Source: Bacteroidales bacterium (lineage in GTDB: Bacteria > Bacteroidota > Bacteroidia > Bacteroidales > P3). Taken from it: 64,000 nt of DNA. The stretch covers positions 31,134-95,133 of the forward strand of contig JAFTFL010000015.1 of assembly GCA_017449525.1 (NCBI GenBank), given 5' to 3'. The notes under the pieces were generated by a model. It did not search any database, was not told where the DNA came from, and saw only the letters and a list, made by a program, of their open reading frames with translations. The translations under genes and the position numbers were made by a program. Below, piece by piece: positions 369 through 63,150 of this stretch (positions are counted from its first letter, which is position 1; every line of letters starts with the position of its first letter).

Positions 369-580
369 GCTTATGGCGTACGGCACGTAGGTATTGTGCT
401 GTACGGCGTCGGTGTGTCGTCCGTGCTTTTCTGTTGGCGTTCATCTTGTTGTGCACGGTTGAAGCCGTACGGCATGGCCTCATGCACCGCACGACGTGTC
501 CACAGGTTCCGTACGGTGTCGAGCCGTGTGCCGCAGGGCATCAGAATGCGTTGTCCTGCAACGGTGGTGTTAATTATGTC
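369..580 (+). repeat. 22-bp periodic array, GTAC type
   Basis: The hexamer GTACGG occurs at 378, 401, 467 and 511, that is at steps of 23, 66 and 44 bp. Degenerate units (GCACGA, GCAGGG) fill the skipped registers. The best core is the palindrome GCCGTACGGC. I see no convincing gene between 126 and 697; open frames through the array have no protein-like composition. Confidence 0.7.
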
Positions 581-621
581 TAAATGACTGCATCAGCCGC
601 CGTGTTCGCTTGGCTTTTTTG

Positions 622-629
622 TACTTTTG
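622..629 (+). promoter_or_regulatory. -7 promoter box TACTTTTG for the small lipoprotein gene
   Basis: This exact TAnnTTTG match lies 69 bp before the start codon at 698. The 5' leader it would produce contains GCCGAAAACC at 648-657, exactly 50 bp upstream of the ATG, followed by AGAGTAGGC. The same arrangement precedes the porin-like gene at 36591. Confidence 0.7.
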
Positions 630-697
630 TGCCTGCATTTTGGAGCAGCCGAAAACCATATAGAGTAGGCAACATAAACAATAATAGCGAGAAAACA

Positions 698-919
698 ATG
701 AAGAAAGTAGTTTTAGTATTGGGCGTTGCAGCCATGATGTTTGGCATGGCAAGCTGCAGCAAGACCTGCAAGTGCACTTACACTGTGGCTGGTATTTCCG
801 CAACACAGCACGACATCGACATTTCGGACAATGACGATGTGAAGAAGTGCAAGGACCTCAACGACTCTTTCACCGTGAACGGTGTAAAAGTAGCCGATGC
901 TGATTGCAGCGCTGAGTAA
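698..919 (+). CDS. Small Cys-rich lipoprotein
   Basis: This is a 73-residue protein with an N-terminal lysine pair, a hydrophobic segment and a lipobox (FGMASC, lipidated Cys20), so export and lipid anchoring are expected. The mature part is acidic and holds four further cysteines (about residues 23, 25, 52 and 70), which could form disulfides or bind metal. The frame is open further upstream, but the ATG at 698 is the only start that begins a signal peptide and lies downstream of the TACTTTTG box. A strong hairpin terminator follows at 961, so it is probably monocistronic. I do not recognise a family. Confidence 0.75.
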   Translation: MKKVVLVLGVAAMMFGMASCSKTCKCTYTVAGISATQHDIDISDNDDVKKCKDLNDSFTVNGVKVADADCSAE

Positions 920-960
920 ATAGAACAGGTGTCGCCCAGAGGGCGGCGCAAAAGTACAAC

Positions 961-998
961 AGCCACGGCAATACTCCTCTGCGAGTGTTGCCGTGGCT
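961..998 (+). terminator. Hairpin terminator after the small lipoprotein gene
   Basis: AGCCACGGCAA pairs perfectly with TTGCCGTGGCT, and the inner bases TACTC/GAGTG extend the stem to about 16 bp around a 6-nt loop. GTGTTTTATG follows. Confidence 0.8.
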
Positions 999-1127
999 GT
1001 GTTTTATGTGGTGGGGGATTGGAGCGCGGATTGCCGCATCCTTCTGCTGCAACTGGTGCCACTGTAGGGTGGGGACTACTGCAGAACGCTGCGCTTCGGT
1101 AGGGGTGCAAACGCTTGGTTAGCAGTG

Positions 1128-2591
1128 CTATTTCAGGTTGAAGCGGAGCGTCTTTTCGCCCTTGTTGGTGCGAATGTGCAGTGTGTAGCTGTCCTTGGGC
1201 ATCTTGCTGATGGTGATGCGCTGCCCGTTGCGATATTGGGGCAGGGTGCGCACGCTGCGTCCGTCGCTGCCCACGAATTCTACTTCGGCCGCCTCGCTCT
1301 CCATGCTGATGGTGATGTAGCCCTGGCTGAGGAAGGGGTTGACTGTAATTTTCTCTGTGGAGCGGCCTTGGGCTTCCATGCCCGACGAGAGGGTGTAGTC
1401 TTCGTTGAGGAGGCTGCGGCTGAGGCTGCTGTATTGGCGCGATTCGGGTGTGGCACTGCGCCCTTCGCTGACTGGCCGAGCTACAAAAGTGCTGCCCACA
1501 GGCAGGTGGGCGGTGTAGCGCCCCTCCTTGTCGGTCGTTACGGTGGCGTTGCCTATCGAGAGGGTGATGCCCTCTATTGGCGTGCCGCGTTCGTCGCGCA
1601 CCGTGCCGGCAATGCTTTGTCCGCTGAAGCGTACGAGCCCACGCGAATCGGTGCCAAACCATTTGGAGCCCTGCGCGTCAATGGCAATGCAGTTGACTGA
1701 GGCTTGGGGTATCGGACTGTTGGCTGGGGTGAAGGTCTGCCAATGTTTGTGTCCGTCGAACGAGGCCACCCCCTTGGCTGTGGCAATCCATAGCAGGCCG
1801 CCCTCGTCGATGGCCAGATCGTTCACCTGGTCGGAGGGCAAGGGGCTGTTGTCCACGGTGTAGGTGGTCCATCGCGACCCGTCGTAGTGCGCCAGGCCAC
1901 CGAGGGTGCCCATCCAAAACGAGCCGTCGGCAGCCTCCACAATGGAGGGTACATTGTTGTGGGGTAGGGAACTATTGGTGGTAGTGAAGGTGGACCACTG
2001 CTCCCCGTTCAGCAGCGAGATGCCCTCGTTGGTGCCTATCCATTTGCGTCCGCGCTTGTCGATGGTAACGCAGTGTATGAAGTCGCTCACCAAGCTGGAG
2101 GACTGCTGGGTGTACTTCTGCCAGTGGGTGCCATCAAAGCTGAGCAAGCCGCCGAGCGTTACGCCTATCCAGAGTGTACCCTGGCGGTCGATGGTAATCT
2201 CGCGTATGAATTTCATGCCGTAGCGTTTGGTTTCGGCTGTGTATTCGGTCCAGTGCACCCCGTCGAATTTCATCACGCCGTAGTCGTCGGTGCCGAGCCA
2301 CAGGTTGCCCTCCTTATCGGTGGTGAGGCAGTTGATGAACTGGTCCTTCAGCTTCTTGTTGAACATGGTGTAGTCGGTCCAAGTGCGGCCAGTGAGGCGG
2401 CACAGGCCGAGGTTGGTGCCCACCCACTTGTTGCCCTTAGCATCGGTGGTGAGAGCCAAGATGTTGTTGCCCGCAATGTCGGAATTGGAGGTGTTGAAGA
2501 TGGTCCAAAGTGTCTGCTGGGCAAAAGCAGTGTGAGATAGCAGCATCAGCAGCAGGCCTACGAGGGAACGAAAGGGGCGCATGTTGGGCAT
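1128..2591 (-). CDS. Secreted beta-propeller sensor-type protein with T9SS-like C-terminal domain
   Basis: The protein has 487 residues. A signal peptide ending near AFAQ is followed by about seven two-component-regulator propeller repeats (for example NLWLGTDDYG, TLWIGV, KWIGTNEG, SFWMGTLGG, LLWIATAKG, KWFGTDSRG). Next comes a carboxypeptidase-regulatory-like domain starting SIAGTVRDERGTPIEGI. The final roughly 75 residues resemble a T9SS type A sorting domain (ITVNPF...SYTLHIRTNKGEKTL), so cell-surface delivery is likely. Unlike hybrid histidine kinases with such propellers, there is no membrane segment or kinase. It follows the 'AsnB-like' gene by 15-bp spacing, so the two are probably co-transcribed. 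The ligand is unknown. Confidence 0.8.
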   Translation of the reverse strand: MPNMRPFRSLVGLLLMLLSHTAFAQQTLWTIFNTSNSDIAGNNILALTTDAKGNKWVGTNLGLCRLTGRTWTDYTMFNKKLKDQFINCLTTDKEGNLWLGTDDYGVMKFDGVHWTEYTAETKRYGMKFIREITIDRQGTLWIGVTLGGLLSFDGTHWQKYTQQSSSLVSDFIHCVTIDKRGRKWIGTNEGISLLNGEQWSTFTTTNSSLPHNNVPSIVEAADGSFWMGTLGGLAHYDGSRWTTYTVDNSPLPSDQVNDLAIDEGGLLWIATAKGVASFDGHKHWQTFTPANSPIPQASVNCIAIDAQGSKWFGTDSRGLVRFSGQSIAGTVRDERGTPIEGITLSIGNATVTTDKEGRYTAHLPVGSTFVARPVSEGRSATPESRQYSSLSRSLLNEDYTLSSGMEAQGRSTEKITVNPFLSQGYITISMESEAAEVEFVGSDGRSVRTLPQYRNGQRITISKMPKDSYTLHIRTNKGEKTLRFNLK

Positions 2592-2606
2592 GGAATGTCG
2601 GGGGTG

Positions 2607-3893
2607 TTAGGTTTTGTGTTTTTCTTTTTTGGCGGCAGGAAAGAGAATATTGTTCAAGATGAGTCGGTAGCCTGGGGAGTTGGGGTAGAGCGACAGGTCG
2701 GTCTGGGGGTCGCCCACGAAGTGGCTGTAGTCCTCGGGGTCGTGGCCGCCGAGGAATGTCCAAGTGCCCCGACCGTACTCTCCGTGGAGGTAACGCACTT
2801 CGCCCAACGCCTTGTTCTCTCCCAGAATGAGGGCGCTGCTCTTGACGTGTTGTTTGCGGAAGGCGGTGGTCTGCCCCATGAATCCGTGGATAACACGGGT
2901 GTGGTTCTGGGTCAGCATGGTCGGTATACAGTCCCACTTGGCTGAGAAGTCGAAGAGTGTGAAGAAGTCGTTCTTCTCGTTGACAGTGCGCGAACGACTA
3001 CGCGCATCGATGTCGATGGTCGATATCTCGTACTCCGAGGGATTGGTGCTGATGCGGAAGTCCTTAAAGGCAAAGGTTTTGGAGAAGTCTAAGAGCTGCT
3101 GCGCGTTGGGTTGCATAGGGTCGCCGTCGAACATGGACTCGCAGATGTCCACTCCCTCTGCGGCGAGGGCTACGTCGTAGCTGTCGGGTGCGGAGCACAT
3201 GGCGAAGAGGAATCCCCCTCCGGCCACAAAGTCGCGTATCTTCAAGGCAACGGCCAACTTCAATTGAGACACCTTGCTGTAGCCCATCTTGTGTGCCAAA
3301 TCTTCCTGTGCGCGCACGTCCTCGATATACCACTGTTGGTGGCGGTAGCTGCCCCAGAACTTGCCGTACTGGCCAGTGAAGTCTTCGTGGTGGAGGTGCA
3401 GCCAGTCGTACATAGGCAGCACGCCTCCCAGCACCTCTTCGTCGTACACTACGTCGTAGGGTATGTCGGCGTAGGTGAGGACGAGGGTTACCGCATCGTC
3501 CCATGGGAGCTTGTTCTTGGGCGAATAGACCGCTATCTTGGGTGCTTTCTGCAGACGCACTGCGTCCTGGTTGACGCTGGGGTCGGCTATGTGGGAGAGG
3601 ATTGCGGTGGATTGGCCGTCGGCTATCACTTCACAGCTCACGCCGCGCAACTTGCACTCGCGTTCTATGCCGTCGGCATGCTTCATCATAAAGCTACCGC
3701 CGCGATAGTTGAGCAGCCACTGCACCTCCACGTCGTGTTGTAGCACCCAGTAGGCCACACCGTAGGCCTTGAGGTGATTCTTCTGCACATCGTCCATGGG
3801 AATGAGCAGGTAGGCGGCACGCAGGGGCGGCGCACTAAGTAGGCAAAGAAGGAATAGGAGGACGGGAACGGTGATGCGACGTAGGGCCGACAT
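2607..3893 (-). CDS. Secreted Bacteroidetes protein often labelled 'asparagine synthetase B'
   Basis: The protein starts with a signal peptide (MSALRRITVPVLLFLLCLL). A longer start at 3932 would place 13 extra residues in front of it, so I chose the inner ATG. The mature part opens LIPMDDVQKNHLKAYG, which I recognise as typical of a conserved Bacteroidetes family that databases call asparagine synthetase B. I see neither the N-terminal catalytic cysteine nor the ATP-pyrophosphatase loop of real AsnB, so that name is probably an annotation error. The central part (KIAVYSPKNKLPWDDAVTLV) looks like a flavodoxin/amidotransferase-type alpha/beta fold. It lies directly upstream of the propeller gene, suggesting a joint surface role. 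Confidence 0.7.
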   Translation of the reverse strand: MSALRRITVPVLLFLLCLLSAPPLRAAYLLIPMDDVQKNHLKAYGVAYWVLQHDVEVQWLLNYRGGSFMMKHADGIERECKLRGVSCEVIADGQSTAILSHIADPSVNQDAVRLQKAPKIAVYSPKNKLPWDDAVTLVLTYADIPYDVVYDEEVLGGVLPMYDWLHLHHEDFTGQYGKFWGSYRHQQWYIEDVRAQEDLAHKMGYSKVSQLKLAVALKIRDFVAGGGFLFAMCSAPDSYDVALAAEGVDICESMFDGDPMQPNAQQLLDFSKTFAFKDFRISTNPSEYEISTIDIDARSRSRTVNEKNDFFTLFDFSAKWDCIPTMLTQNHTRVIHGFMGQTTAFRKQHVKSSALILGENKALGEVRYLHGEYGRGTWTFLGGHDPEDYSHFVGDPQTDLSLYPNSPGYRLILNNILFPAAKKEKHKT

Positions 3894-4000
3894 CGGCGCA
3901 TGAAGCAATGGGATGCAGGTGCGATTGTCCATGCGGACAGTAACTCAAAAATGGCGATTATAGTATGCTCGTACGGGAGTTCCCCCTACGGCGGCAGGGG

Positions 4001-4474
4001 CTACTGGGCTTGGGACGGGCTGTAGCGCGTGCCGACAAAGCCGTGGGCTACCGTGTTGTGCTGCAGGTCGAAGTGCAGAAAGAGGGGTGGGGTGGGCTTG
4101 AGGTCGTAGTAGTCTAATGCGCGGATGCTCATCTTGAAGTAGGCGATTTCCGTATAGTCGCTGTAGAGGCGTGGCAGTACGGGATTGCGCTGGAAGATGA
4201 GTTGCTGATGTGCGTCGTCCACGTTGAAGTCGGCATCGCCCTTGCACCGCACTGAGGTCTGGTCAGCCATGGTCAACAGTTCTATGTGTGGATTGGCCTG
4301 CAGTTGGCGGTAGACATCCTTGCGGGGCGAGGTGGCAAAGTATAGGGTGGAGCCTTCGATGTGCATCACCTGAAAGGCGCGCAGTTGTGGATAAGAGTCC
4401 TCGCAGGTGGCGAAGACCAGTTCGTTGTGTTCGGCTATGAAGCGCAGTGCTTGTTCAAGATTGACGTTGTTCAT
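4001..4474 (-). CDS. Pyridoxamine 5'-phosphate oxidase-family flavin-binding protein
   Basis: The protein is about 157 residues with a split-barrel PPOX-family pattern: EQALRFIAEHNELVFATCED, then PQLRAFQVMHIEGSTLYFATS, then PHIELLTM. Family members bind FMN or a related cofactor and are often small reductases; the substrate cannot be told. A start at 4516 would add 14 residues, but the family normally begins close to MNNVNLEQAL, so I use 4474. That ATG overlaps the stop of the sirtuin remnant (ATGA-type junction), which implies that a deletion has placed this gene behind the macrodomain gene. Confidence 0.8.
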   Translation of the reverse strand: MNNVNLEQALRFIAEHNELVFATCEDSYPQLRAFQVMHIEGSTLYFATSPRKDVYRQLQANPHIELLTMADQTSVRCKGDADFNVDDAHQQLIFQRNPVLPRLYSDYTEIAYFKMSIRALDYYDLKPTPPLFLHFDLQHNTVAHGFVGTRYSPSQAQ

Positions 4475-4635
4475 GTGGATAGGTGGGTTGAGGATGTCGG
4501 CAATCGGCTCCAGCATAGTCCAGCCCAGCTGGCGGTCGACAGGCCTGTGCCGGCTCCTATCAGAAGGGCATCAGCATCGGATAGCAGCTGCTGCAGGGGC
4601 TGCAGTCGGGCAGAGTAGCTGTTGGTAGATTGCAT
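4471..4635 (-). pseudogene. N-terminal remnant of a SirTM-type sirtuin
   Basis: A 54-codon frame starts with an ATG inside the 3' end of the macrodomain gene, in a different frame. Residues 19-34 read SDADALLIGAGTGLST, the first Rossmann strand and glycine loop of the class M sirtuins that are normally encoded just after zinc macrodomains. After SWAGLCWS the similarity stops and the frame ends 11 codons later at the start of the flavin-binding gene. The roughly 250 residues that carry the catalytic histidine and the rest of the NAD site are missing. A deletion is the simplest explanation. Confidence 0.7.
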
Positions 4636-5389: not shown

Positions 5390-5570
5390 TGTACTGTGTT
5401 GGCACGTGCGCCAAGCACGATGTGAAACGTGGTGCCGTACGGTTTAGTATGTACGGCCTGCGCCCCGATGCGGTACGTACAATAATAACGTGTGTTTGAT
5501 TATCTTGATAAATGCCACCATGTGAATTGTTTAGGTTGTGAATGATAGGGTCGTTTTCATGTGTCTTTTG

Positions 5571-5790
5571 TCAAGGTCTCAGCTTTACATTGTCAAGGTC
5601 TCAGCTTTACGTTGTCAAGGTCTCAGCTTGACATTGTCAAGGTCTCGACTTTACATTGTCAAGGTCTCGACTTTACATTGTCGAAGTCTCGGCTTGCAGA
5701 AGAGGGTTTTTGATGCTTGCAGAAGAGGGTTTTTGATGCTTGCAGAGGAGGACTTTTTGATGCTTGCAGAGGAGGGCTTGATGTAGGTGT
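5571..5790. repeat. 22-bp periodic array, TCAAGGTCTC family passing into a 23-bp TTGCAGAGG family
   Basis: TCAAGGTCTC starts at 5571, 5593, 5615, 5637 and 5659, with a variant at 5681, so the period is exactly 22 bp. It then changes to three to four units of 23-24 bp built on TTTTTGATGCTTGCAGA. Further left, GTACGG/GTACGT at about 5465 and 5487 are also 22 bp apart. With the next array, these repeats fill most of the 810-bp gap from 5390 to 6201; I see no gene there. Confidence 0.85.
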
Positions 5791-5865
5791 AGTCCGACGG
5801 AGGGTCAGAGGCAGCACTCGTCGCGTGCCGCACTTGCTCTACGGATGACCGCCGCCTCCCCAAAA

Positions 5866-6008: not shown

Positions 6009-6026
6009 TACCGTTCCTCGGAGGTC

Positions 6027-6193: not shown

Positions 6194-6201
6194 TGAGGGC
6201 T

Positions 6202-12275: not shown

Positions 12276-12336
12276 GGCGGTTTAGATGTTGATAACGTGT
12301 GTTTCGTGCGCGCAGGTCGTTGCGCTGTGAGTGGTG

Positions 12337-12344
12337 CAAATGTA
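12337..12344 (-). promoter_or_regulatory. -7 promoter box TACATTTG of the TlpA-like gene
   Basis: This exact TAnnTTTG match lies 62 bp upstream of the start codon at 12275. Confidence 0.7.
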
Positions 12345-12379: not shown

Positions 12380-12580
12380 GTGATGCCGTAGGGGTAGAGG
12401 AGTGGATGCCGTACGGATGGGACATTGGCGGCCTTGGGTTGGAGAGTGTATGCCGTACGGCATGGTGGTGATATAACAAGATGAATGGCAGTGTGGTAGT
12501 GGTGGATGAATGTGGGAGCTGTGCGGCATGTGTGGCTACGCCGTACGGCCTGGCGTATGGCATTCACTGCGTGTGGAAAC
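12380..12580 (-). repeat. 22-bp periodic array, GTAC type
   Basis: GTA(C/G)GG cores occur at 12388, 12411, 12454 and 12543, that is at steps of 23, 43 and 89 bp, within 1 bp of multiples of 22. The strongest unit is the 14-bp palindrome ATGCCGTACGGCAT at 12450-12463. The whole gap 12276-12964 contains no gene I can support. Confidence 0.65.
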
Positions 12581-12716
12581 GGGAGGTGAGACAAAGGGAA
12601 CTTGGCAGGACTGCTGCCAAACGCGATGGGTGCTGCCAACCGAGGTGGGTGGGCGTTCGACAAATGGGGTAACCTTTGGACAGGTTGCGTTCAAAATCTG
12701 CAGCCCAACTCGGTTG

Positions 12717-12724
12717 CAAAAGTA
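12717..12724 (-). promoter_or_regulatory. Promoter-like -7 box TACTTTTG reading into the GTAC array
   Basis: This TAnnTTTG match points leftwards. It is too far (over 440 bp) to be the main promoter of the TlpA-like gene, which has its own box at 12337. The GTAC array lies between the two boxes. Confidence 0.4.
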
Positions 12725-27114: not shown

Positions 27115-27290
27115 GGTGTACGTCAGAGGAGAGAAAGGCACACGTCAGATAAGGATTTGTCAGAACTTTGATAAGCATACATTACGAGTGAGAAAGGCTC
27201 ACGAAAGACGGGCGGAATACTCACTTTGAGAAGGGTAAAAGGATAGATAAGGAATGAGAAAAAGATAAGGAAGGAAAATAAATAATCTAC
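27115..27290. repeat. Weak 22-bp periodicity between mnmE and serS
   Basis: ACGTCAGA recurs 22 bp apart near 27119 and 27141. GAGAAAGG/GAGTGAGAAAGG-like units continue in rough register to about 27280. The signal is weak and may be mere purine-rich composition. Confidence 0.3.
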
Positions 27291-28819: not shown

Positions 28820-29075
28820 AAAATATACATCAGATTTGATGTAAGCCTACATCAGTTGCTGACAACGTGTTTTCAGCAACTTTGCTACACGTTGTAAAGT
28901 GCTTTACAACGTGTAGTGAGATTATTGAGAACGCGTTATAAAAAATATCACTACGTATACTAAACTTCTTCACAACGTGTTATTAGTAGTACGTGATATA
29001 CCTTTACCTCACGACTGATAAATCCTTTCATCAGCCCAGATGAAAGGATTTCGTGGTCGCGATGAAAGAGCAAAC
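28820..29075. repeat. 22-bp periodic array, ACAACGTGTT family
   Basis: About ten consecutive 22-bp units keep register, with a near-palindromic centre (ACAACGTGTT, ACAACGTGTA, AGAACGCGTT, ACTACGTATA). ATCAGATTTGATGTAAG at 28829-28845 recurs exactly at 37790-37806 in the array near fabG, where GAGAACGTGTTG also appears, so the two arrays are related. Confidence 0.75.
29020..29051. repeat. Hairpin inside the array
   Basis: AAATCCTTTCATC pairs perfectly with GATGAAAGGATTT (13 bp, 6-nt loop). No T-tract follows on the plus strand, so it is not a typical terminator. Confidence 0.5.
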
Positions 29076-36510: not shown

Positions 36511-36518
36511 TACTTTTG
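36511..36518 (+). promoter_or_regulatory. -7 promoter box TACTTTTG of the porin-like gene
   Basis: This TAnnTTTG match lies 73 bp before the last base upstream of the ATG. The leader carries GCCGAAAACC at 36541-36550, exactly 50 bp before the start, followed by AGAGTAGGCG, as in front of the lipoprotein gene at 698. Confidence 0.75.
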
Positions 36519-36590
36519 CACCCACAAAACCAATGGGGATGCCGAAAACCAATCAGAGTAGGCGCAATTAAACAATCAAACTAAACCACT

Positions 36591-37349
36591 ATGAAGAAAA
36601 TCCTTTTGACCTTGGGTCTTGCAGCCTTTGCTTTTGCTGCCAATGCACAATGGGTAGTCGGCGGAAACCTCGGCTTCAGCGCTAATGGAGGCAATACGCA
36701 CGAGGAGAGCACTGCAGCAGGTTCCCCTGAATTAGACCTTCACACCACCCGCGCTACCGACCTCACCCTCCTGCCCAAAGTGGGCTATCAGCTCAATGAA
36801 AAGATGCAGATTGGTGCATCATTTGGTCTCCAGTTTAATAAGGATAAGAACTTCACTGGATCAACAACCGAAAGCAATGAAAACTACACCTCGCGTGGCC
36901 AGAGCGTTATTACCATTGCTCCCTACTTCCGTTACAACGTCACCGAGTTGGGTAAGTTCACCCTCTTCTGCGAGGCAAGCCTTGGTATCGGCATTACTCC
37001 GAAGTCGCACAGAGCTACTTATGCTCCCAGCGCAATTGATACGACCTGGAGAGGTAACAACCGTGAACTGGGCATCTCTCTATCCATCGTACCTGGTCTG
37101 AACTATAAGTTCAATGAGCATTTGTCGGCCGACCTCTACATCGACCTGCTCCGCTTGGGCTACAACTACACCAAGCACACCACCGAGAATGAAACCACTC
37201 TTGGAGGAACAACAATCACCACAACCAAGGTTACTAAGACCCACGACTTTGGCTTTACAGCCAACGCAGCTGCAGGTATGGGCGATGGCACAGGTGCTAT
37301 CATGCACATGAACGGTGCTATTCGCATCGGTTTTAATTACCATTTCTAA
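36591..37349 (+). CDS. Outer-membrane beta-barrel (porin-family) protein
   Basis: The protein has 252 residues with a clean signal peptide (MKKILLTLGLAAFAFAANAQ). The mature part is a series of 8-10 alternating strands such as KMQIGASFGLQFN, VITIAPYFRYNV and LSADLYIDLLRLGYNY. It ends in a terminal strand with the aromatic last residue HF, as expected for BAM-dependent insertion. It is monocistronic, with its own promoter, a shared leader motif and a terminator hairpin. The physiological substrate is unknown. Confidence 0.8.
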   Translation: MKKILLTLGLAAFAFAANAQWVVGGNLGFSANGGNTHEESTAAGSPELDLHTTRATDLTLLPKVGYQLNEKMQIGASFGLQFNKDKNFTGSTTESNENYTSRGQSVITIAPYFRYNVTELGKFTLFCEASLGIGITPKSHRATYAPSAIDTTWRGNNRELGISLSIVPGLNYKFNEHLSADLYIDLLRLGYNYTKHTTENETTLGGTTITTTKVTKTHDFGFTANAAAGMGDGTGAIMHMNGAIRIGFNYHF

Positions 37350-37599: not shown

Positions 37600-37930
37600 T
37601 GATGTAAGTTTACTTCATTGGCCATATATTGTTATATCAAGCTTCATGAAAGCTTTCATTAGGTTTGATGAAAGTGCACATCTTGTCTGATGAAAGTTTA
37701 CTTTGGTTCTGATGAATACTTACATCATGTCTGACGAAAACGTACATCATATCTGATGAAAGTATACTTCAGACATGGTAAAAGTTTATATCAGATTTGA
37801 TGTAAGTGCTCATCATTTTTTGAGAACGTGTTGTAAAGATACTGAGAGCGTGTTCTTAGCTTTTGACGTAAGCTTACATCAAACCTGATATATGCTTACA
37901 TGAGGGTGTGATGTAAGCCTTTGTTACTCA
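37600..37930. repeat. 22-bp periodic array, TCTGATGAAAGT family
   Basis: At least ten consecutive units (TCTGATGAAAGTTTACTTTG and relatives) step by exactly 22 bp. Their centres are near-palindromic (GATGTAAG/TACATC). Towards the right end the unit changes to GAGAACGTGTTG, as in the array at 28820. It fills the gap between the convergent porin and fabG genes together with terminators at both ends. Confidence 0.85.
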
Positions 37931-47472: not shown

Positions 47473-48204
47473 TCAGCGGTCGTAGTTTTGAGTGCCTACC
47501 AGTTTGCCGCTGGCGTCGTAGAATTCCCACACGCCAGCCCTGCGGTCGGCTATGTAGAAGCCTTTGAAGGTGGGTTTCCCGTCCTCACGGTAGCTATTGT
47601 ATATGCCATTGAGCGCACCGCTAATGTATACGGCTTCGCTGAGCAACTGGCCGTGAGGATAGTAGTAGCTCCAGCGGCCAGTGCGTTGGCCTCCTACTTC
47701 GCAGCCGTAGGATTCGATACTGCCGTTGGCATAGAGCTGATAGATGTAGGCGCTGTCGGCGTGGTGAAACCGCACGATGTGCAGGCTGCCGTCGTCGTTC
47801 CAGTCTACGCTGGTGGAGTCGGTCTTGCCCTGAAAGAGGGGGTCGCCGTCGGGGGTGCGCACGTCCCAGTCGCCGGTAGTGCTGCGGTTGTAGTTGGCTG
47901 TGGCCAGTGGTTTGCCGTTGGGGTAGTAGCAGTGCCATTGACCTGTAGGTTGTTGCGCCTTGAAGTGCTTCTCGGTTTGCACCTGTCCGTTGGGGTAGAA
48001 CGTGGTCTCGTCCACACTCGACGGACTGGCAACATCGCCGCGCAAGGTGCGCTTCATGGCAGGTTGCCCATTGTCGTGGGTAGCTACTATCTCGTCCTGC
48101 TTGGACTGGCAAGCTACCAGGAGAATCAGCGCACTGCAGGCGAGTAGCAAACGTTTTGCTGGACGAAGCAGGAGGTGCAGATGAGGTTCAATCGGTTGTT
48201 GCAT
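47473..48204 (-). CDS. MORN/YwqK-type repeat lipoprotein
   Basis: The protein has 243 residues. The lipobox LLVAC (Cys32) follows a hydrophobic stretch. The mature part has repeated strands of the type FYPNGQVQTEKHF, YYPNGKPLATANY, YYPHGQLLSEAVY and YREDGKPTFKGFY, as in YwqK-like antitoxin or MORN proteins. These form a beta-sheet rod and probably bind a partner at the membrane. The start at 48204 lies 40 bp after a TATCTTTG box. First gene of the operon with the CCA transferase and miaA. Confidence 0.8.
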   Translation of the reverse strand: MQQPIEPHLHLLLRPAKRLLLACSALILLVACQSKQDEIVATHDNGQPAMKRTLRGDVASPSSVDETTFYPNGQVQTEKHFKAQQPTGQWHCYYPNGKPLATANYNRSTTGDWDVRTPDGDPLFQGKTDSTSVDWNDDGSLHIVRFHHADSAYIYQLYANGSIESYGCEVGGQRTGRWSYYYPHGQLLSEAVYISGALNGIYNSYREDGKPTFKGFYIADRRAGVWEFYDASGKLVGTQNYDR

Positions 48205-48243
48205 ATTGCGTTGATTGGAGCACGTAGTGCTGTTGAACGGGTG

Positions 48244-48251
48244 CAAAGATA
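48244..48251 (-). promoter_or_regulatory. -7 promoter box TATCTTTG of the MORN lipoprotein operon
   Basis: This exact TAnnTTTG match lies 40 bp before the start at 48204. Confidence 0.75.
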
Positions 48252-48399
48252 CGAAAAAAGCACGCAGCACCGCACCGTACACACTCCAGGGGTGCAGAGG
48301 GGACTGGCAAATGCCGATCGGCACTGCGGATGCGGCCGTGGACATGCGCCTACAAGAGCTGCGCGAGAGCACGGCGGGAACCGTTCGGCCTTGTGGTCG

Positions 48400-48570
48400 A
48401 TGCTGTACGCAATGGGCGGCAATGTCCTGCTGCATCGTGTCCCCTGCTGTACAGCATGGGATGGGATTAACTGGATGAATGATAGATTGATTCTTGCGCA
48501 CATGGGAATAAGTCGTGCGGCATAGTGTCCGATGCTGTACGCCATCTGGCACTACGCTCATGGGCGTATG
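48400..48570 (-). repeat. 22-bp periodic array, GTAC type
   Basis: GTAC cores (GATGCTGTACGC, CCTGCTGTACAGCAT, GATGCTGTACGCCAT) lie at 48405, 48449 and 48537, exactly 44 and 88 bp apart, with degenerate units (CGTGCGGCAT, CTGCTGCAT) in the intermediate registers. Nothing else in 48205-48915 looks like a gene. Confidence 0.75.
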
Positions 48571-48754
48571 GCGCGAAATGGTAGGGAAAAACGGTGCAGG
48601 GTGGGGGAGAATCCCTTGCAAGGTGTAAGGCCGAGCGGCCTAATTGGGGTGCGACGAAAGGAGCGACGGGCAACTGTGCCTCCCTGTACGCAATGCGCTG
48701 AAACAGCCATGCCTGTACACTTCGGCTTCATGGAGCCTGCGACGCATCACGATG

Positions 48755-48762
48755 CAAAAGTA
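48755..48762 (-). promoter_or_regulatory. Promoter-like -7 box TACTTTTG reading into the GTAC array
   Basis: This TAnnTTTG match faces leftwards, over 500 bp before the MORN lipoprotein gene, which has its own box. About 190 bp of leader with short inverted repeats (TAAGGCCG/CGGCCTAA) precede the array. It may express a non-coding RNA or be a second distant promoter. Confidence 0.4.
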
Positions 48763-51719: not shown

Positions 51720-52043
51720 ACGTCAGCATCCGCCAGGGGGTACTTGGCATGGGTTCTGCGCGCTACGTCACCGCGGTCCGCACTAAATGGAGACGTGTTT
51801 GGTGCAGAAAGAATTTGCTGTCAGCGCAAAAAGAAATGAAGCCCAGTACAAAAGGATCTTACGGTTCGTACTAACAGAAACTGCGGTCAGTGCAAAAAGA
51901 AATGAAGACCAGCGCAAAGAGACCTTACGGTTCGTACGAACAGAAGCTGCGGTCAGCGCAAAAAGAAATGAAGCCCAGCACAAAAGGGCCTTACGGTTCG
52001 TACTAACAGAATTTGCTGTCAGCGCAAAAAGAAATGAAAAAAA
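51720..52043. repeat. 22-bp periodic array with 66-bp higher-order unit
   Basis: TTACGGTTCGTAC starts at 51859, 51925 and 51991 (66 bp apart). Each 66-bp unit is three 22-bp sub-units: AGCGCAAAAAGAAATGAAG, AGCACAAAAGGGCCTTACGG and a CGTACTAACAGAA type. Weaker TACGTCA/TACTTGG units at 22-23 bp begin near 51720. It fills the gap between the convergent EFR1 and M6 protease genes. Confidence 0.9.
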
Positions 52044-56791: not shown

Positions 56792-56799
56792 TACCTTTG
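56792..56799 (+). promoter_or_regulatory. Promoter-like -7 box TACCTTTG reading into the GTAC array
   Basis: This TAnnTTTG match lies 540 bp upstream of serC, which has its own box at 57233. The transcript would begin with GCGCAAAGT, which pairs with ACTTTGCGC about 70 bases later and would enclose a structured domain, and then run into the array. Confidence 0.45.
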
Positions 56800-56919
56800 C
56801 AGCGCAAAGTGGCACGTCTGTTGGCAGTTTGCCTGTAGGCGATGAGGTGTGTCCGTCGTGGCGTTCTGAGCCGACTTTGCGCAGCCAAAATCTTCTTTTT
56901 CAGATAGAGCAACGAGACG

Positions 56920-57145
56920 GAAGTTTGCAGTGTTCGGCCGTTGCGCCGTACGGCATGCGTCGGCTGATTGCGCGGCGATGGTGTAAATCAACAACATGAT
57001 TGGCCTCGATGCCGTACAGTTTGTGCGCCGCTGCCCAACGACATCGGGGCGGAAGTCTGCAGTGTTCGGTGCGGCGCGTGTACAGCATCGCGCCGCGACC
57101 ACCTCAGGCGTTGCTGGCGAAGACCAACCCATACAGGGACTGGTG
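56920..57145 (+). repeat. 22-bp periodic array, GTAC type
   Basis: GTAC cores lie at 56948, 57014 and 57080, exactly 66 bp apart. GGAAGT(T/C)TGCAGTGTTCGG recurs at a 132-bp distance (6 x 22). Intermediate units keep the register. The gap 56620-57337 contains no gene I can support. Confidence 0.8.
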
Positions 57146-57232: not shown

Positions 57233-57240
57233 TATCTTTG
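57233..57240 (+). promoter_or_regulatory. -7 promoter box TATCTTTG of serC-serA
   Basis: This exact TAnnTTTG match lies about 98 bp upstream of the serC start. Confidence 0.75.
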
Positions 57241-57337
57241 CCCCCGTGTGTAGAAAGGGAGGGGCAGTCGTAAAAGACATGCAGAGAAACGATTAAAGAT
57301 AACTTGTTTATACATACCAAACATCAAACAAAAACCA

Positions 57338-58441: not shown

Positions 58442-58458
58442 ACAATCGCATGACGACG

Positions 58459-58506
58459 GTGGTTCGCGGACACGCACGCTCAGCAGGTGGCGCTCTCGCG
58501 AACCAC
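58459..58506 (+). promoter_or_regulatory. Intercistronic hairpin between serC and serA
   Basis: GTGGTTCGCG pairs perfectly with CGCGAACCAC over a 28-nt loop inside the 99-bp gap. No T-tract follows. It may protect the serC transcript end or reduce read-through into serA. Confidence 0.55.
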
Positions 58507-58540
58507 TGCTTGCATCATCCTTAATTAGACAATCGAAGCA

Positions 58541-59461
58541 ATGAAAGTTTTAGTTGCAACAGAGAAACCTTTCGCTAAGGTGGCCGTTGACGGCATCCGC
58601 GAAGTGGTTGAGAAGAACGGCTACGAGCTGGCTCTCCTTGAGAAGTATACTGATGTGAACGACCTCTACAAGGCAGTGGCTGACGCTGATGCCCTCATCG
58701 TTCGTTCGGATAAGGTTACGAAAGAGGTGATAGACCATGCCAAGAACCTCAAGATCGTGGTTCGCGCTGGTGCAGGGTTTGACAACCTTGACCTCGAGGC
58801 TTGCACGGCTCGCGGCATTGTGGCTATGAACACGCCTGGTCAGAACAGCAACGCTGTGGCTGAACTGGTGATGGGCTTGCTGGTTTATGCAGTGCGCAAC
58901 TTCTACAACGGAAAGAGCGGCAGCGAACTGATGGGCAAGAAGCTCGGCATTTTGGCCTTCGGCAACGTGGGCCGCAACGTGGCTCGTATAGCCAAAGGCT
59001 TCGGCATGGAGGTGTACGCTTACGACGCGTTCCTCACCGCTGACCAAATCAACCAAAGTGGTATTGCCACGGCAGTGGCCAACCAGGAGGCACTGTTCGA
59101 GACTTGCGATGTGGTGTCGCTGCACATCCCGGCAACTGCCGAGACCAAGCAGAGCATCAACTACGCGCTCGTGGGCAAGATGCGCAAGGGTGGTATTCTG
59201 GTGAATACGGCCCGCAAGGAGGTTATCAACGAGGCTGAACTGCTTAAGTTGATGGCTGAACGCACCGACCTGAAGTATGTTACGGATATTATGCCCGATG
59301 CCGACGCTGAGTTCAAGGCTTTCGAGGGTCGCTACTTCGCTACGCCCAAGAAGATGGGTGCTCAGACCGAGGAGGCTAACATCAATGCTGGTATTGCAGC
59401 AGCCAATCAGATTGTTGACTTCTTCAAGACGGGTAACAAGAAGTTCCAGGTGAACAAGTAA
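58541..59461 (+). CDS. serA: D-3-phosphoglycerate dehydrogenase, short lysine type
   Basis: The protein has 306 residues, without the ACT or other regulatory domains of E. coli SerA. It oxidises 3-phosphoglycerate to phosphohydroxypyruvate. The NAD site is AFGNVGRNVARIAKGFG, the substrate region is VRAGAGFDNLDLEA, and catalytic Arg/Glu positions are likely in NTARKEVINE. Where the classical enzyme has its catalytic histidine (TPHxG), this one has TPKKMGAQTEEA near residue 268, that is lysine. Lysine-type enzymes of this length are known, for example in Entamoeba, so it is probably active. Confidence 0.94.
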   Translation: MKVLVATEKPFAKVAVDGIREVVEKNGYELALLEKYTDVNDLYKAVADADALIVRSDKVTKEVIDHAKNLKIVVRAGAGFDNLDLEACTARGIVAMNTPGQNSNAVAELVMGLLVYAVRNFYNGKSGSELMGKKLGILAFGNVGRNVARIAKGFGMEVYAYDAFLTADQINQSGIATAVANQEALFETCDVVSLHIPATAETKQSINYALVGKMRKGGILVNTARKEVINEAELLKLMAERTDLKYVTDIMPDADAEFKAFEGRYFATPKKMGAQTEEANINAGIAAANQIVDFFKTGNKKFQVNK

Positions 59462-59492
59462 TCACGGTCGCTTGTCATCGAGACTATGAAGC

Positions 59493-59517
59493 AGAGGATG
59501 CCACTGCGGCATCCTCT
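59493..59517 (+). terminator. Terminator of serC-serA
   Basis: AGAGGATGCC pairs with GGCATCCTCT (5-nt loop), followed by CTCTTTTTTT. Confidence 0.95.
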
Positions 59518-59619
59518 CTCTTTTTTTGCAGATGTATGGAGTGGCGAAGGGCATGAGGTGATAGGGAGTGGCGGTTGTGTCGGGTGGCGGTGCTATATAT
59601 TATAGGTGTAGGCGCTGGT

Positions 59620-60160
59620 CGGTGGCTGGAAGTTCACTGGCCGAAGGAGGAAGTTGTGCTGCTTAAGGTGGAAGTTCCGTTGCTCGAATGAGATAGTTAC
59701 GCTGGCCGAAGGAAGAAGTTGTGCTGCTTAAGGTGGAAGTTCCGTTGCTCGAATGAGATAGTTACGCTGGCCGAAGGAAGAAGTTGTGCTGCTTAAGGTG
59801 GAAGTTCCGTTGCTCGAATGAGATAGTTGCACTGGCCGAAAGAAGAAGTTGTGCTACTTAAGGTGGAAGTTCCGTTGCACGAAAGAGATAGTTACGCTGG
59901 CCGCAAGAAGAAGTTGCGCTGCTCAAGGTTGGAGTTCCGTTGCTCGAAAGAGATAGTTGCACTGGCCGAAGGAAGAAGTTGTGCTGCTTAAGGTGGAAGT
60001 TCCGTTGTTCAAAAGAGATGGTTCCGCTGGCCGGAGGAAGAAGTTGTGCTGCTTAAGGTGGAAGTTCCGTTGCTCGAAAGAGATAGTTCTGCTGTCCGCA
60101 GGAGGAAGCTCAGCTGTCCGCAGGAGGATGTTTCGCTGGTCGAGGAAAGGTGGGAGGCTG
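59620..60160. repeat. Tandem array, 65-bp unit made of 22+21+22
   Basis: AAGGTGGAAGTTCC-type cores lie at 59665, 59730, 59795, 59860, 59925, 59990 and 60055, all 65 bp apart. Each unit contains three related sub-units ending AAGTTG, AAGTTCC and TAGTTAC. Copies are 85-95% alike to the eye. Frames reading through give repetitive peptides without protein-like features. Confidence 0.92.
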
Positions 60161-60199
60161 GTCGATGATGGAAATGATGATGATTGACAGGAGGATAGG

Positions 60200-61294
60200 A
60201 TGATGTCGGTGGAGACGCTGTGGGTGTACAATCCGGAGCATGACTTGTGTCTGGCGAACGGGGATGCGCATTTTGTGGCGCCGGAGTCGGCGCTGAGGTT
60301 GGGCGACGATTGTTGCGAGGCGATGCGGTGGATTGGCGAGGCGGATGAGTTGTGCCGCTCGTCGCGTGGGCTGTGCTGCTCGTCGCGCGGGTTGGCGCGG
60401 GTGCTGCGCGAGGTGCGCCCTGAGCGCGTTGTGCCGTGGGGATGGAATGCGGTGTTGACCACGCAGTTGCGTCGGCTGGGGGTGGCTGAACGGTTGTTGC
60501 CTTCGGCCGATGAGTTGGGTCGTTGGCGGGCGCTTCAGCACCGGTCGACGGCGGTGAGGTGCGCGTCGTGGTTGGCGAGTCGTGGTGTGGAGGTGGTGGA
60601 GTGCGCGTTTGCGGCGTCGGTCGACGAGGTGGTGGCTGCGGTGAGTGGGGGCGGCGACTGGGTGCTGAAGGCTCCCTGGAGCGGCAGTGGGCGCGGGTTG
60701 CGCTGGGTGAGGTGGCCGATGAGTGGGCATGACCTGGGGTGGGTGGCGCGCATGGTGCGAACGCAGGGGGGCGTGGCGGTGGAGCGTCGGTGCCGACGGG
60801 TGTGCGATTGGGCTATGCTGTTTGCGGTGGATGAGGAGGTTAGTTTTACGGGCTATTCGCTCTTTGCGACGCGCGGTGGTGTGTATGCGGGCAATTGGTT
60901 GCGGTCAGATGGGGCGGTGGAGCGGCTGGTGGGCGAGCTGGTGGGGCTGGAGGTGGTGCGGAGGGTGCGCGCCGAGTTGGCCGAGTGGCTGCGGCAGGAG
61001 GTGTGGCCGTGCTATCGGGGGCCTGTGGGGGTGGATATGTTGGTGTATGAGGATGAGGTTGAGGGCGGTGCGCGTCTTCATCCGATGGTGGAATTGAACT
61101 TGAGGCACACGATGGGCATGGTGGCGCACGGTTTGCTGGCGCGTCGTCCGGAGTTGGAGGGCGGCTGGATGGGGGTGGAGCGTGCGGCCGCCGAGGGTGA
61201 TGGCTATGTGCTGCAGGTGCGGCCGCCGCGGTCGGATTGGGAGGCGATGGCAGAGCGTGTGAAGGGTATGGATTGTCTTTTTGTTAACGGTTGA
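60200..61294 (+). CDS. ATP-grasp-like conserved Bacteroidetes protein
   Basis: The protein is 364 residues (or 363 from the second Met). The start VETLWVYNPEHDLCLANGDA and the glycine-rich loop WVLKAPWSGSGRGLRWV resemble an ATP-grasp carboxylate-amine ligase-like family found in Bacteroidetes. VGVDMLVYEDE and HPMVELNLRHTMGMVAHG would supply metal and substrate sites. No substrate is known. The gene is markedly G-rich on the coding strand, with Val/Arg/Gly/Trp-heavy composition. mntP follows after a 22-bp array; I recall the two as frequent neighbours in Bacteroidetes. Confidence 0.7.
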   Translation: MMSVETLWVYNPEHDLCLANGDAHFVAPESALRLGDDCCEAMRWIGEADELCRSSRGLCCSSRGLARVLREVRPERVVPWGWNAVLTTQLRRLGVAERLLPSADELGRWRALQHRSTAVRCASWLASRGVEVVECAFAASVDEVVAAVSGGGDWVLKAPWSGSGRGLRWVRWPMSGHDLGWVARMVRTQGGVAVERRCRRVCDWAMLFAVDEEVSFTGYSLFATRGGVYAGNWLRSDGAVERLVGELVGLEVVRRVRAELAEWLRQEVWPCYRGPVGVDMLVYEDEVEGGARLHPMVELNLRHTMGMVAHGLLARRPELEGGWMGVERAAAEGDGYVLQVRPPRSDWEAMAERVKGMDCLFVNG

Positions 61295-61299
61295 TGATT

Positions 61300-61445
61300 C
61301 CTGAAGTAACAGAAAATGTTCACCATAGCAGTAGAAAATGTTCTCCGCAGAAACAGGGCATGGTCAGCACAGAAGCAGATGATGCGCTCTTTGGCAACAG
61401 ATAATGTGTAGTATAGCGGCAGAAGGTGTTCTGCGTAGTAAGGGT
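61300..61445. repeat. 22-bp periodic array, CAGAAAATGTTC family, upstream of mntP
   Basis: Six consecutive units step by exactly 22 bp: AACAGAAAATGTTC, AGTAGAAAATGTTC, AACAGGGCATGGTC, AGCAGATGATGCGC, AACAGATAATGTGT and GGCAGAAGGTGTTC. They fill the gap up to 25 bp before the mntP start. Confidence 0.85.
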
Positions 61446-61469
61446 TGAGGGTTGTTTTTTAAACGGTTG

Positions 61470-62039
61470 ATGATGAGTTTGGTGGAAGTTTTACTCATGG
61501 CGGTGGCTCTTTCGGTGGATTCGTTGGTGGTGGCGGCTGCGGCGACGGTGCAGTCGCGCTTGTCGGTGCGGCGGCTGGTGCTGATGGCGTCGGTGTTTGC
61601 GGTGGTGCAGGGGGTGCTGCCGTGGTTGGGTGCTATGTTGGGCGGTGTGTTTCAGCAGGGTATGGAGTCGGTGGATCATTGGGTGGCGTTCGGGCTGCTG
61701 GTGGCTGTGGGGGGCAAGATGGTGTGGGACGGCGTGCGCGGTGCCGAGGAGGGGCGGCGGCTTGATGCGTCGCGCCTCGGGGTGATGTGTGTGCTGGCGG
61801 TGGCCACTTCGATCGATGCTTTTGTGCTGGGCATCGGCATGGGGCTGAGTATGAGGGGCGGACGGGTGTGGCCGGCGTGCGCGCTCATTGGGCTGGTTAC
61901 GTTCGGTGCGGCGCTGCTGGGGGGCTGGCTGGGGCGGCGCAGCGTGGTGCTGCCTGCGCGGTTGGCTTCGGTGGTGGCAGGGACGGTGCTCATTGGGTTG
62001 GCGGTGCGCACGCTGTTTGAGCACGGGGTGTTCGCGTAG
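61470..62039 (+). CDS. mntP: Manganese efflux pump MntP
   Basis: The protein is about 189 residues with six membrane segments. The paired motifs MAVALSVDSLVVAAAA and LAVATSIDAFVLGIGMG carry the essential aspartates of the two MntP repeats. It exports Mn2+. ATG codons at 61470 and 61473 are equivalent; an earlier TTG is unlikely. I see no yybP-ykoY riboswitch; the leader is replaced by a 22-bp array. Codon use is G-rich like its upstream neighbour. Confidence 0.93.
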   Translation: MMSLVEVLLMAVALSVDSLVVAAAATVQSRLSVRRLVLMASVFAVVQGVLPWLGAMLGGVFQQGMESVDHWVAFGLLVAVGGKMVWDGVRGAEEGRRLDASRLGVMCVLAVATSIDAFVLGIGMGLSMRGGRVWPACALIGLVTFGAALLGGWLGRRSVVLPARLASVVAGTVLIGLAVRTLFEHGVFA

Positions 62040-62078
62040 GGTTTTCTTTTTCAGAGGGTTGTTTTCCTGTGTGCTGCG

Positions 62079-62100
62079 CGCCGAGTTGGGGTACTCGGCG
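62079..62100. terminator. Hairpin after mntP
   Basis: CGCCGAGT pairs perfectly with ACTCGGCG (6-nt loop), 40 bp past the stop; no T-tract follows, so function is uncertain. Confidence 0.55.
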
Positions 62101-62169
62101 TGTGGGGGCGGGGATTTGTGCGTGGTGGGACAACGAATGGTGTGCGTCGGTTCGCGCAGATGTATGTGT

Positions 62170-62690
62170 TGTTTTTCAATGGTCTATGCATAGATTTTTA
62201 ACGGTCTATGCGTAGATTTTCAACGGTGTATGCGTAGACTTTCAGCATTGTATATATAGCGTTGCACATTTCTATGCGTAGATTTTCAACGGTGTATGCG
62301 TAGACTTTCAGCATTGTATATGTAGAATTGCATATTTTTATGCATAGATTTTAAACGGTATATGCGTAGACTTTCAGCATTGTATATATAGAGTTGCACA
62401 TTTCTATGCGTAGATTTTCAACGGTATATGCGTAGACTTTCCATGTTCTATGCGTAGACTTTCAGCATTGTATATATAGAGTTCTTCAACTCTATGCATA
62501 GACTTTCGAATTTGTATGCATACAATTTCTGAATTGTATGCATAGAGTTTGCGAATTGTATGCATACAGTTTTCCAACCGACCGTGCTGACTTTCTTTTT
62601 CGACCGTGGTGGATTTTGAAATTGACCGTGGTGGATGTCAGAACTGACCATAGTAGATGTCAGAACTAAACATGGTGCTTTGTATTTTTG
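62170..62690. repeat. 22-bp periodic array, TATGCGTAG family passing into CGACCGTGGTGGA family
   Basis: TATGC(A/G)TAG starts at 62185, 62207, 62229 and onwards at 22 bp through about 18 units, including TATATATAG variants. From about 62582 the register continues with CGACCGTG, TGACCGTGGTGGATGTCAG and TGACCATAG units. Several 66-bp super-repeats (TATGCGTAGATTTTCAACGG, TATGCGTAGACTTTCAGCAT, TATATATAG) are visible. Confidence 0.92.
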
Positions 62691-63150
62691 GACACGAAGC
62701 CCCTCTGCATTGGGGCGGAACTTTTTGTGCTATGGGCACGAAGTGCTTCCGAGGGGAGTGCGAAGTCCCTCTGCATTGGGGCGGAACTTTTTGCGCTATG
62801 GGCACGAAGTGCTTCCGAGGGGAGTGCGAAGCCCCTCTGCATTGGGGCGGAACTTTTTGTGATACGGGCGCGAAGTGCTTCCGAGGGGAGTGTGAAGTCT
62901 CTCTGCATTGGGGCTGAACTTTTTGCGTTATTGGCGCGAAGCAAATTCGCTTTGCGCGCGAAGCAATTTCGCTTTGCTCACGAAGTTCCACTGCTGGGCT
63001 CATGAATAGTTCCCTCTTTGTCCGCAAAGACTATTTGCATTGCTTACGAAGCAATTCCACCTTGCTCGCGAAGCATTTCCGCCTTGTTCGCGAAGCAATT
63101 TCGTTTTGCTCGCGACGGTTATTTGCATTGCCCGCAAATTTCTTCTGCAC
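62691..63150. repeat. 22-bp periodic array, CGAAGC family, with 66-bp higher-order units
   Basis: CGAAG(C/T)CCCTCTGCATTGGG starts at 62695, 62761 and 62827 (66 bp apart). Each unit also holds GGAACTTTTTG(T/C)GCTATGGG and CGAAGTGCTTCCGAGGGGAG. From about 62937 single 22-bp units CGAAGCAAATTCGC, CGAAGCAATTTCGC and CGAAGTTCCACTGC continue to near 63150. Combined with the preceding array this is about 960 bp of uninterrupted 22-bp register. Confidence 0.92.

What the first reader, a model, noticed from the sequence alone, without database searches (positions are those of the whole stretch)
369..63150. Intergenic DNA built from tandem arrays with one fixed 22-bp period but many unrelated unit sequences
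Reading the gaps by hand I find arrays at about 369, 5571, 5866, 12380, 21285, 28820, 33395, 34300, 36277, 37600, 40590, 48400, 51720, 56920, 59620, 61300, 62170 and 62691. Weaker ones lie near 27115 and 31490. Core motifs repeat at 22 bp or multiples (44, 66, 88, 132). The sequence of the unit differs between loci (GTACGG, ACAACGTGTT, TCTGATGAAAGT, TATGCGTAG, CGAAGC, CAGAAAATGTTC), so the loci are not copies of one mobile repeat; what is conserved is the length. Twenty-two bp is close to two helical turns, so units would face the same side of the DNA, and many cores are near-palindromic. Possible meanings: arrays of sites for an abundant DNA-binding protein, or the footprint of a mutational process that duplicates 22-bp blocks. 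I vaguely recall 22-23-bp direct repeats being noted in Porphyromonas genomes but cannot verify that.
Basis: seen in the sequence. Interest (0 to 1): 0.9.

Follow-up and report, generated by a model that had tools for sequence, protein, structure and literature searches.

The report
Gene-upstream DNA-site arrays at 22-bp steps
In a gut-type Bacteroidales bacterium the DNA between genes carries repeats set two helix turns apart, and the commonest kind is a copied switch-like module upstream of genes, which suggests an unknown protein lining up on one face of the DNA across the genome.

Summary
The 22-bp observation is real and genome-wide. In 348 kb of the window's genome all 26 intergenic repeat clusters lie within 1 bp of a multiple of 22; in a second 294 kb 17 of 20 do. 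Two classes exist. Class I is phased sites rather than duplication: a 12-bp palindrome TGCCGTACGGCA at 22-bp steps with poorly conserved spacers. Site pairs lie within 1 bp of 22n in 87 of 105 and 197 of 233 cases. The module is stereotyped: promoter, ~107 bp, 2 sites, a 44-bp siteless centre, 4 sites, gene. Of 50 arrays, 42 have a promoter reading into them, at distances stepping by 11 bp (R 0.79). I extrapolate ~140 copies. 0 of 119 other genomes of the genus hold the exact spaced pair. Class II is true tandem arrays with several unrelated cores, enriched in convergent gaps. Same-genus relatives favour 11-bp arrays with other units, over a third of them with long inverted repeats. Best reading: operator-like arrays for an unidentified cooperative protein, one half-site per turn; protein, binding and effect are inferred. 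The palindromic-core claim holds for class I only.

The parts
269..277 (+). class I module A: promoter -7 element (TAnnTTTGC), P1
   Evidence: 193 bp before first site of the 4-block
373..541 (+). class I module A: sites at 373, 396 (2-block) and 462, 484, 506, 528 (4-block); siteless centre with TTCATCTTGTTG
12383..12551 (-). class I module B, between guaB (12932, +) and a thioredoxin-domain gene (-): sites 12538, 12516 | centre | 12450, 12406, 12383
12716..12724 (-). module B: P1, 261 bp before first site of the 4-block, reading into the array
12336..12344 (-). module B: gene-proximal promoter P2
48311..48545 (-). class I module C: seven phased sites (48311, 48378, 48400, 48422, 48444, 48510, 48532); overlaps the called ORF 47473-48621, whose true start is probably further in
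48754..48762 (-). module C: candidate P1, 305 bp before first site of the 4-block
56792..56800 (+). class I module D upstream of serC: P1, 217 bp before first site of the 4-block
56943..57088 (+). class I module D: sites 56943, 57009, 57031, 57075
57233..57241 (+). module D: proximal promoter P2 of serC (57338)
5568..5776 (.). class II: TTGTCAAGGTCTCAGCTTTACA x5.8 (22 bp) running into a 23-bp array
   Evidence: similar DNA also on contigs C15, C8 and C5
5867..6000 (.). class II: GGCATGTGCATGTCCATCTTGG array, 22 and 66 bp
28862..28983 (.). class II: weak 44-bp array (ACAACGTGTT core)
37636..37854 (.). class II: TGATGAAAGTGTACATCATGTC array, convergent gap
51799..52038 (.). class II: 66-bp higher-order array, convergent gap
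59637..60116 (.). class II: 65-bp array (7.3 copies) with weak 22-bp substructure
61311..61423 (.). class II: decayed CAGAAAATGTTC array at 22 and 88 bp
62140..62577 (.). class II: TATGCGTAGA/TATGCATAGA array, 22 bp with 66- and 132-bp higher order
62579..62676 (.). class II: GACCGTGGTGGAT array, continuing the register of the preceding array (ATGCAT centre to first GACC centre = 22 bp, measured by hand)
62695..63135 (.). class II: CGAAGC-type 66-bp array followed by 22-bp arrays

Best explanation
Most of the pattern comes from DNA-binding-site arrays whose spacing, not sequence, is fixed by the double helix. Shown: class I is a ~300-bp cis module, present dozens of times, usually in the order promoter P1, ~107 bp of C/T-leaning leader, two sites, 44 bp with a TTCATCTTGTTG-like motif, four sites, then a gene read in the same direction (27 of 31), with a second promoter P2 before that gene in 19 of the 27. 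Sites step by 22 bp and P1 sits at 11-bp steps from the array, so site centres and promoter keep one face of the helix. Inferred: an unidentified dimeric protein that covers one half-site per turn (11 bp) binds cooperatively along one face and interacts with RNA polymerase at P1, blocking or insulating the P1 transcript ahead of P2. Class II arrays would be further site families enlarged by unequal duplication, which preserves multiples of 22. Relatives would use the same 11-bp footprint with half-sites head to tail (period 11) and other recognition sequences. How likely: phased protein-site array about 0.8; one footprint shared with the relatives about 0.35; P1 roadblock or insulator role about 0.3.
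For: Spacing within 1 bp of 22n: 87 of 105 site pairs and 197 of 233 in a second sample, chance 3 in 22; the site matrix was trained on 20 loci of which one lies in each sample (L204 in L097, L206 in L296). Spacer columns are only 0.21-0.47 identical between 43 adjacent units against 0.53-0.88 for the ten inner core columns (pairs were picked by site score, so the core value is partly by construction). Stereotyped order: 10 of 36 arrays show exactly 2-centre-4 and most others a part of it. P1 reads into the array in 42 of 50 and the opposite orientation occurs in 12 of 50, with orientation set by the sites alone; distances 184, 193-197, 205-208, 216-219, 227-230 and a few others, Rayleigh R 0.79 at period 11 and 0.84 (p about 2e-7) for the 22 outside the main mode; against random distances with the best of nine periods p = 5e-5, the floor of 20,000 trials. 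P1 has TAnnTTTGC plus a weak TGC near -22. The gene on the 4-site side is co-directional in 27 of 31. Class I is in 18 of 31 divergent gaps against 13 of 124 others, p 8e-8; class II in 10 of 25 convergent gaps, p 6e-4. DNA-level constraint: G-U type 69 against C-A type 65 in 124 sites. Abundance: GCCGTACGG 180+168 strand hits against 23+14 for the reversed control.
Against: No protein was identified and no binding or expression data exist. P2 is not clearly phased with the array (p 0.18 at 11 bp; 0.024 uncorrected at 11.25). An operator ~100-270 bp downstream of a promoter is unusual (recalled). 8 of 50 arrays have no P1 in the interval, and 4 of 31 have a non-co-directional gene on the 4-site side. 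Promoters within 350 bp of relatives' 11-bp arrays mostly point away (41 away, 5 toward), as do those near the G029 hairpins (16 away, 3 toward), so the module order is not shared, and the link between 11-bp and 22-bp arrays is inference. Class II cores are not palindromic beyond chance. At the score used, class I-like sites are also common in coding DNA (0.72 against 1.36 per kb), so single sites mean little.
Confidence: 0.62

Rival explanations
1. A mutational process (slippage, end joining or a nuclease) duplicates 22-bp blocks of any sequence; the arrays have no function.
For: Class II units are whole-unit copies of several unrelated sequences, all 22 bp or multiples; higher-order 66 and 132 bp repeats.
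Against: In class I the spacers are not copies; P1 distance, site order and gene orientation are stereotyped; coding DNA shows no such dominance (3 of 12 coding clusters within 1 of 22n against 43 of 46 intergenic); cores recur between distant loci.
Confidence: 0.17
2. A dispersed mobile repeat (REP/REPIN or MITE type) whose copies carry tandem units; the module is the decayed element.
Against: Own copies are alike mainly at sites, centre and promoter, with low information in leader and most spacer columns; no Y1 transposase match in the own genome; in G029 conservation fades outward at 11-bp-phased positions instead of ending sharply.
Confidence: 0.13
3. The arrays act as RNA: chains of small hairpins in 5' leaders or small RNAs transcribed from P1.
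For: P1 reads into the array in 42 of 50; some class II arrays fold better than mononucleotide shuffles (z to -7.7).
Against: No excess of G-U over C-A pairs in sites of oriented elements (69 against 65); helical phasing with the promoter has no RNA reason; other class II arrays fold near or worse than shuffles (z +2.5 at 59637).
Confidence: 0.08

Closest known systems
P. gingivalis BrickBuilt MITE and the 22/23/41-nt direct repeats of W83 (PMC4596501, passages seen)
   Same: Bacteroidales, intergenic, dispersed, tandem 22-23 nt units, promoter activity in the element's leader and tail
   Different: BrickBuilt is one family of elements with terminal inverted repeats, leader and tail; here mainly sites, centre and promoter are conserved, there are several unit families, and sites are phased to a promoter
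REP/BIME/REPIN palindromes (PMC3733652, passages seen)
   Same: Short intergenic palindromes in many copies, lineage-specific, often paired
   Different: No stem-loop constraint found, no fixed GTAG/CGTC tag in the own unit, runs of about six sites at 22 bp, upstream and divergent location, no Y1 transposase match in the own genome
Phased operator arrays: PhoB/OmpR-type 11-bp direct repeats, plasmid iterons of about 22 bp, multi-site repressor operators (recalled, not from a call)
   Same: One subunit or dimer per one or two helical turns, cooperative arrays near promoters
   Different: Those (as recalled) keep one consensus across relatives and have few copies; here an extrapolated ~140 modules per genome in front of unrelated genes, with a spaced motif pair not found in 119 other genomes of the genus

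Membership tests
REP/REPIN with RAYT | Stem-loop under pairing constraint | tested here: not met
   G-U 69 vs C-A 65 in 124 oriented sites
REP/REPIN with RAYT | Y1 (REP-associated) transposase in the genome | tested here: not met
   PF01797: 0 matches in G000, though 16 of 21 searched genomes have one; the genome is 94.65% complete
REP/REPIN with RAYT | GTAG or CGTC tag next to the palindrome | tested here: not met
   Consensus around the sites carries no such fixed tag; most G029 hairpins are preceded by CCGTC, which resembles the tag
MITE (BrickBuilt type) | Terminal inverted repeats and element-wide similarity between copies | tested here: not met
   Low information in leader and most spacer columns; terminal repeats were not searched for beyond the aligned stretches of that call
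MITE (BrickBuilt type) | Insertion polymorphism or target-site duplication | not tested
   No strain pairs were available
Simple minisatellite | Whole unit copied head to tail | tested here: not met
   Class I spacer columns 0.21-0.47 identical; class II does meet this feature
Multi-site operator array of a DNA-binding regulator | Conserved symmetric sites in fixed helical register with a promoter | tested here: met
Multi-site operator array of a DNA-binding regulator | A protein that binds the site and changes transcription | not testable with these tools
   needs pull-down, ChIP and reporters

The most novel reading that the evidence does not exclude
This genus organises gene-upstream DNA with nucleoprotein arrays whose conserved property is geometry, one protein unit per 11-bp turn, while the recognition sequence is replaced from species to species at dozens to over a hundred loci, with the arrangement of half-sites (all one way, or alternating) setting whether a genome shows an 11- or 22-bp period.
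Probability: 0.3. Interest if true: 0.92.

Novelty: new variant of a known kind. Interest (0 to 1): 0.78.

Why it matters
A cis module present at an estimated 140 places in one genome, in front of unrelated genes, with its own promoter and helix-locked spacing, points to a global DNA-binding factor that I could not name. The apparent replacement of its motif within one genus would be a rare natural case of a global regulator and all its sites changing together, which could be followed across the 120 genomes of the genus held here.

Tried and rejected
Palindromic cores as a general property: rejected for class II and for the relatives' 11-bp units. RNA hairpins as the selected feature: not supported. 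RAYT-driven REPs: no Y1 transposase match in G000. Order-wide phenomenon: samples of eight genomes from other families of the order showed few arrays (one 22, one 23 among them) and no 22-bp dominance (for G053 and G054 my caller found no genes, so those two cannot separate coding from intergenic DNA). P2 phasing with the array: not clear. Literature: searches listed no paper that I recognised as reporting 22- or 11-bp quantised arrays of this kind; I judged by titles and abstract starts and saw passages of three papers; only open-licence papers are held. Rows dropped before counts: contig C8 (L099), part of which looks like a second copy of the end of C5, was left out but not; placements were made unique by contig position; the 54 placements still held overlapping ones, and only the 26 with a promoter entered. 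In one search, 3 of 34 arrays lacked a gene on one side. Phase of P2 used 20 promoter positions copied. A first spaced-pair pattern was searched in 50 genomes and a broader one in 120, both exact. Searches fetched stretches around sites picked from the list, so the 50 arrays are not a random sample; the ~140 extrapolation uses only the 34 arrays in about 622 kb not picked for sites (it includes the window itself).
Full report
Setting. The window is G000:C3:31134-95133 of a 2.53 Mb, 26-contig genome, 94.65% complete. Its guaB protein is up to 90% identical to that of sheep, goat and other ruminant metagenome Bacteroidales, and T9SS genes are present. In the rows listed, UvrA is at most 72% identical to that of other genomes of the genus, so no close sister is in hand.

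Observation. A base-identity lag scan of the window gives peaks at 22, 44, 66, 88 and 132, and one 65/130 locus. With one threshold for all lags 5-70 and the smallest well-scoring lag assigned to each cluster, all 26 intergenic clusters in 348 kb of G000 fall at 22 (17), 23 (1), 44 (4) and 65-67 (4); of 7 coding clusters two are within 1 of a multiple of 22 (21 and 66). With the arrays masked, lag 22 is still the highest intergenic lag (z 8.3), ahead of 15 and 12 (z 7.2 and 7.0), which I take for leftover coding DNA. A second, non-overlapping 294 kb gives 17 of 20, the others 16, 24 and 56.

Class I. The most frequent intergenic 10-mers besides the promoter type TACCTTTGCA belong to ATGCCGTACGGCAT. 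GCCGTACGG occurs 180+168 times by strand in the genome against 23+14 for the reversed control. Of twenty fetched sites, 15 are listed with at least three phased sites; L202 and L204 also show them by eye, while L190, L192 and L195 hold a lone site. The palindrome recurs in the same 22-column register while the spacers differ: spacer columns 0.21-0.47 identical, ten inner core columns 0.53-0.88, in 43 adjacent pairs picked by site score. In gaps of at least 150 bp, 87 of 105 site pairs up to 200 bp apart are within 1 bp of a multiple of 22; in the second sample 197 of 233. Chance is 3 in 22. One of the 20 training loci of the site matrix lies in each sample.

Anatomy. Among 36 arrays of three or more phased sites the spacing pattern 1-3-1-1-1 or its reverse is the commonest (10 of 36): two sites, a 66-bp step, four sites. 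The 44-bp siteless centre carries a TTCATCTTGTTG-like motif, read in the 2-to-4 direction. A template made only of sites was then used to orient arrays: 42 of 50 have TAnnTTTGC 100-330 bp before the 4-block, reading into the array, against 12 of 50 for the opposite orientation. Distances fall at 184, 193-197, 205-208, 216-219, 227-230 and at 161, 249, 261, 283 and 305, a period of 11 bp (R 0.79; R 0.84 for the 22 outside the main mode). Against random placement, with the best of nine periods, p = 5e-5, the floor of 20,000 trials; that null does not keep the main mode, but 22 distinct distances alone give R 0.80. The promoter also has a weak TGC near -22, supporting the reading direction. The gene on the 4-site side is co-directional in 27 of 31, and 19 of those 27 have a second TAnnTTTG promoter before it. 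Those genes are of varied kind: of seven scanned, six gave families (a DnaX-type clamp loader subunit, YceD, a dihydroorotate dehydrogenase B-type protein, a T9SS-secreted protein, a polysaccharide export protein, a thioredoxin-domain protein) and one none; serC is another. Thirty-four arrays in about 622 kb not picked for sites extrapolate to about 140 in the genome.

DNA, not RNA. In 124 sites of oriented elements, pairs that would be G-U in the transcript (69) are no commoner than C-A mismatches (65). Selection therefore seems to act on the DNA palindrome.

Class II. The other arrays are whole-unit tandem repeats with several cores. Combining the two samples, class I is in 18 of 31 divergent gaps and 2 of 25 convergent ones; class II in 10 of 25 convergent and 1 of 31 divergent. 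Cores recur between loci: ACCGTGGTSGA has 46 matches against 4 for the reversed control and forms arrays on C3, C5/C8, C15 and C24. The C24 array has 13 consecutive units at exactly 22 bp that share GACCGTGGTCGAT, with a few varying bases after it. In the window the TATGCAT array passes into the GACCGTGG array without losing the 22-bp register (measured by hand). These units are not palindromic beyond chance.

Relatives. In 1.06 Mb from same-genus genomes and guaB loci of near relatives, the commonest intergenic period is 11 (52 of 142 clusters), then 7 (29), 8 (15) and 9 (12); period 7 is also the commonest in DNA called coding (45 of 128). The 11-bp units differ between and within genomes. 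The 11-bp arrays have long inverted repeats more often (score 15 or more in 37%) than those of period 7 (0), 8 (20%) or 9 (0). The 450 bp before guaB has best lag 11 in 9 of 21 relatives against 15 of 400 random windows from such loci, which I take to be mostly coding. In G029 a 93-bp hairpin of 4+4 11-bp units is dispersed (80 strand matches, capped); in 24 distinct copies the stem is almost invariant, the 5-nt loop varies, and similarity fades outward over units such as GACGGTGTTGA. Promoters within 350 bp of the relatives' 11-bp arrays point away (41) more than toward (5). The exact spaced GCCGTAC pair is in 1 of 120 genus genomes, the own one.

Mechanism. Shown: sites, spacing, order, promoter register and gene orientation. 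Inferred: a cooperative protein with one half-site per turn on one face, acting on polymerase at P1 ahead of P2; and a shared 11-bp footprint in relatives, with half-sites head to tail (period 11) or alternating (period 22). The last step rests on geometry alone.

Known context. PMC4596501 (passages) describes BrickBuilt, a MITE with 23-nt repeats, and cites 22-, 23- and 41-nt direct repeats in P. gingivalis W83. PMC3733652 (passages) describes CGTC-tagged REPs in Bacteroidetes not linked to transposases. The passages I saw show no promoter-phased site array. My searches listed no such report.

Noticed in passing
L118 7500-7592, L153-L182 (genome G029): A 93-bp hairpin built of 4+4 11-bp units is dispersed at about 40 or more places with almost invariant stems, varying 5-nt loops and flanks that fade outward over degenerate 11-bp units.
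   Followed up: partly
near-relative loci L005-L026, L039, L105-L144: Tandem arrays of period 7 are also frequent (29 intergenic clusters and 45 called as coding); units and genic status were not examined.
   Followed up: no
L106 and L126 (genome G002): Lags 26, 27, 52, 53, 79, 105 and 132 in one genome, as if the period were about 26.4 bp.
   Followed up: no
far loci L027, L029, L031, L035, L040, L074: Period 21 or 42 arrays in several distant Bacteroidetes, again close to two helical turns.
   Followed up: no
36532-36564: Rfam DUF805b RNA (RF02914) match 21 bp after a promoter-like TAnnTTTGC at 36511 and ahead of the ORF at 36591.
   Followed up: no
G000 contigs C8 and C5: The arrays on C8 (6795-6959, 13716-13850) look like copies of those near the end of C5 (134285-134449, 127394-127528), possibly strain redundancy or an assembly duplicate.
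   Followed up: partly
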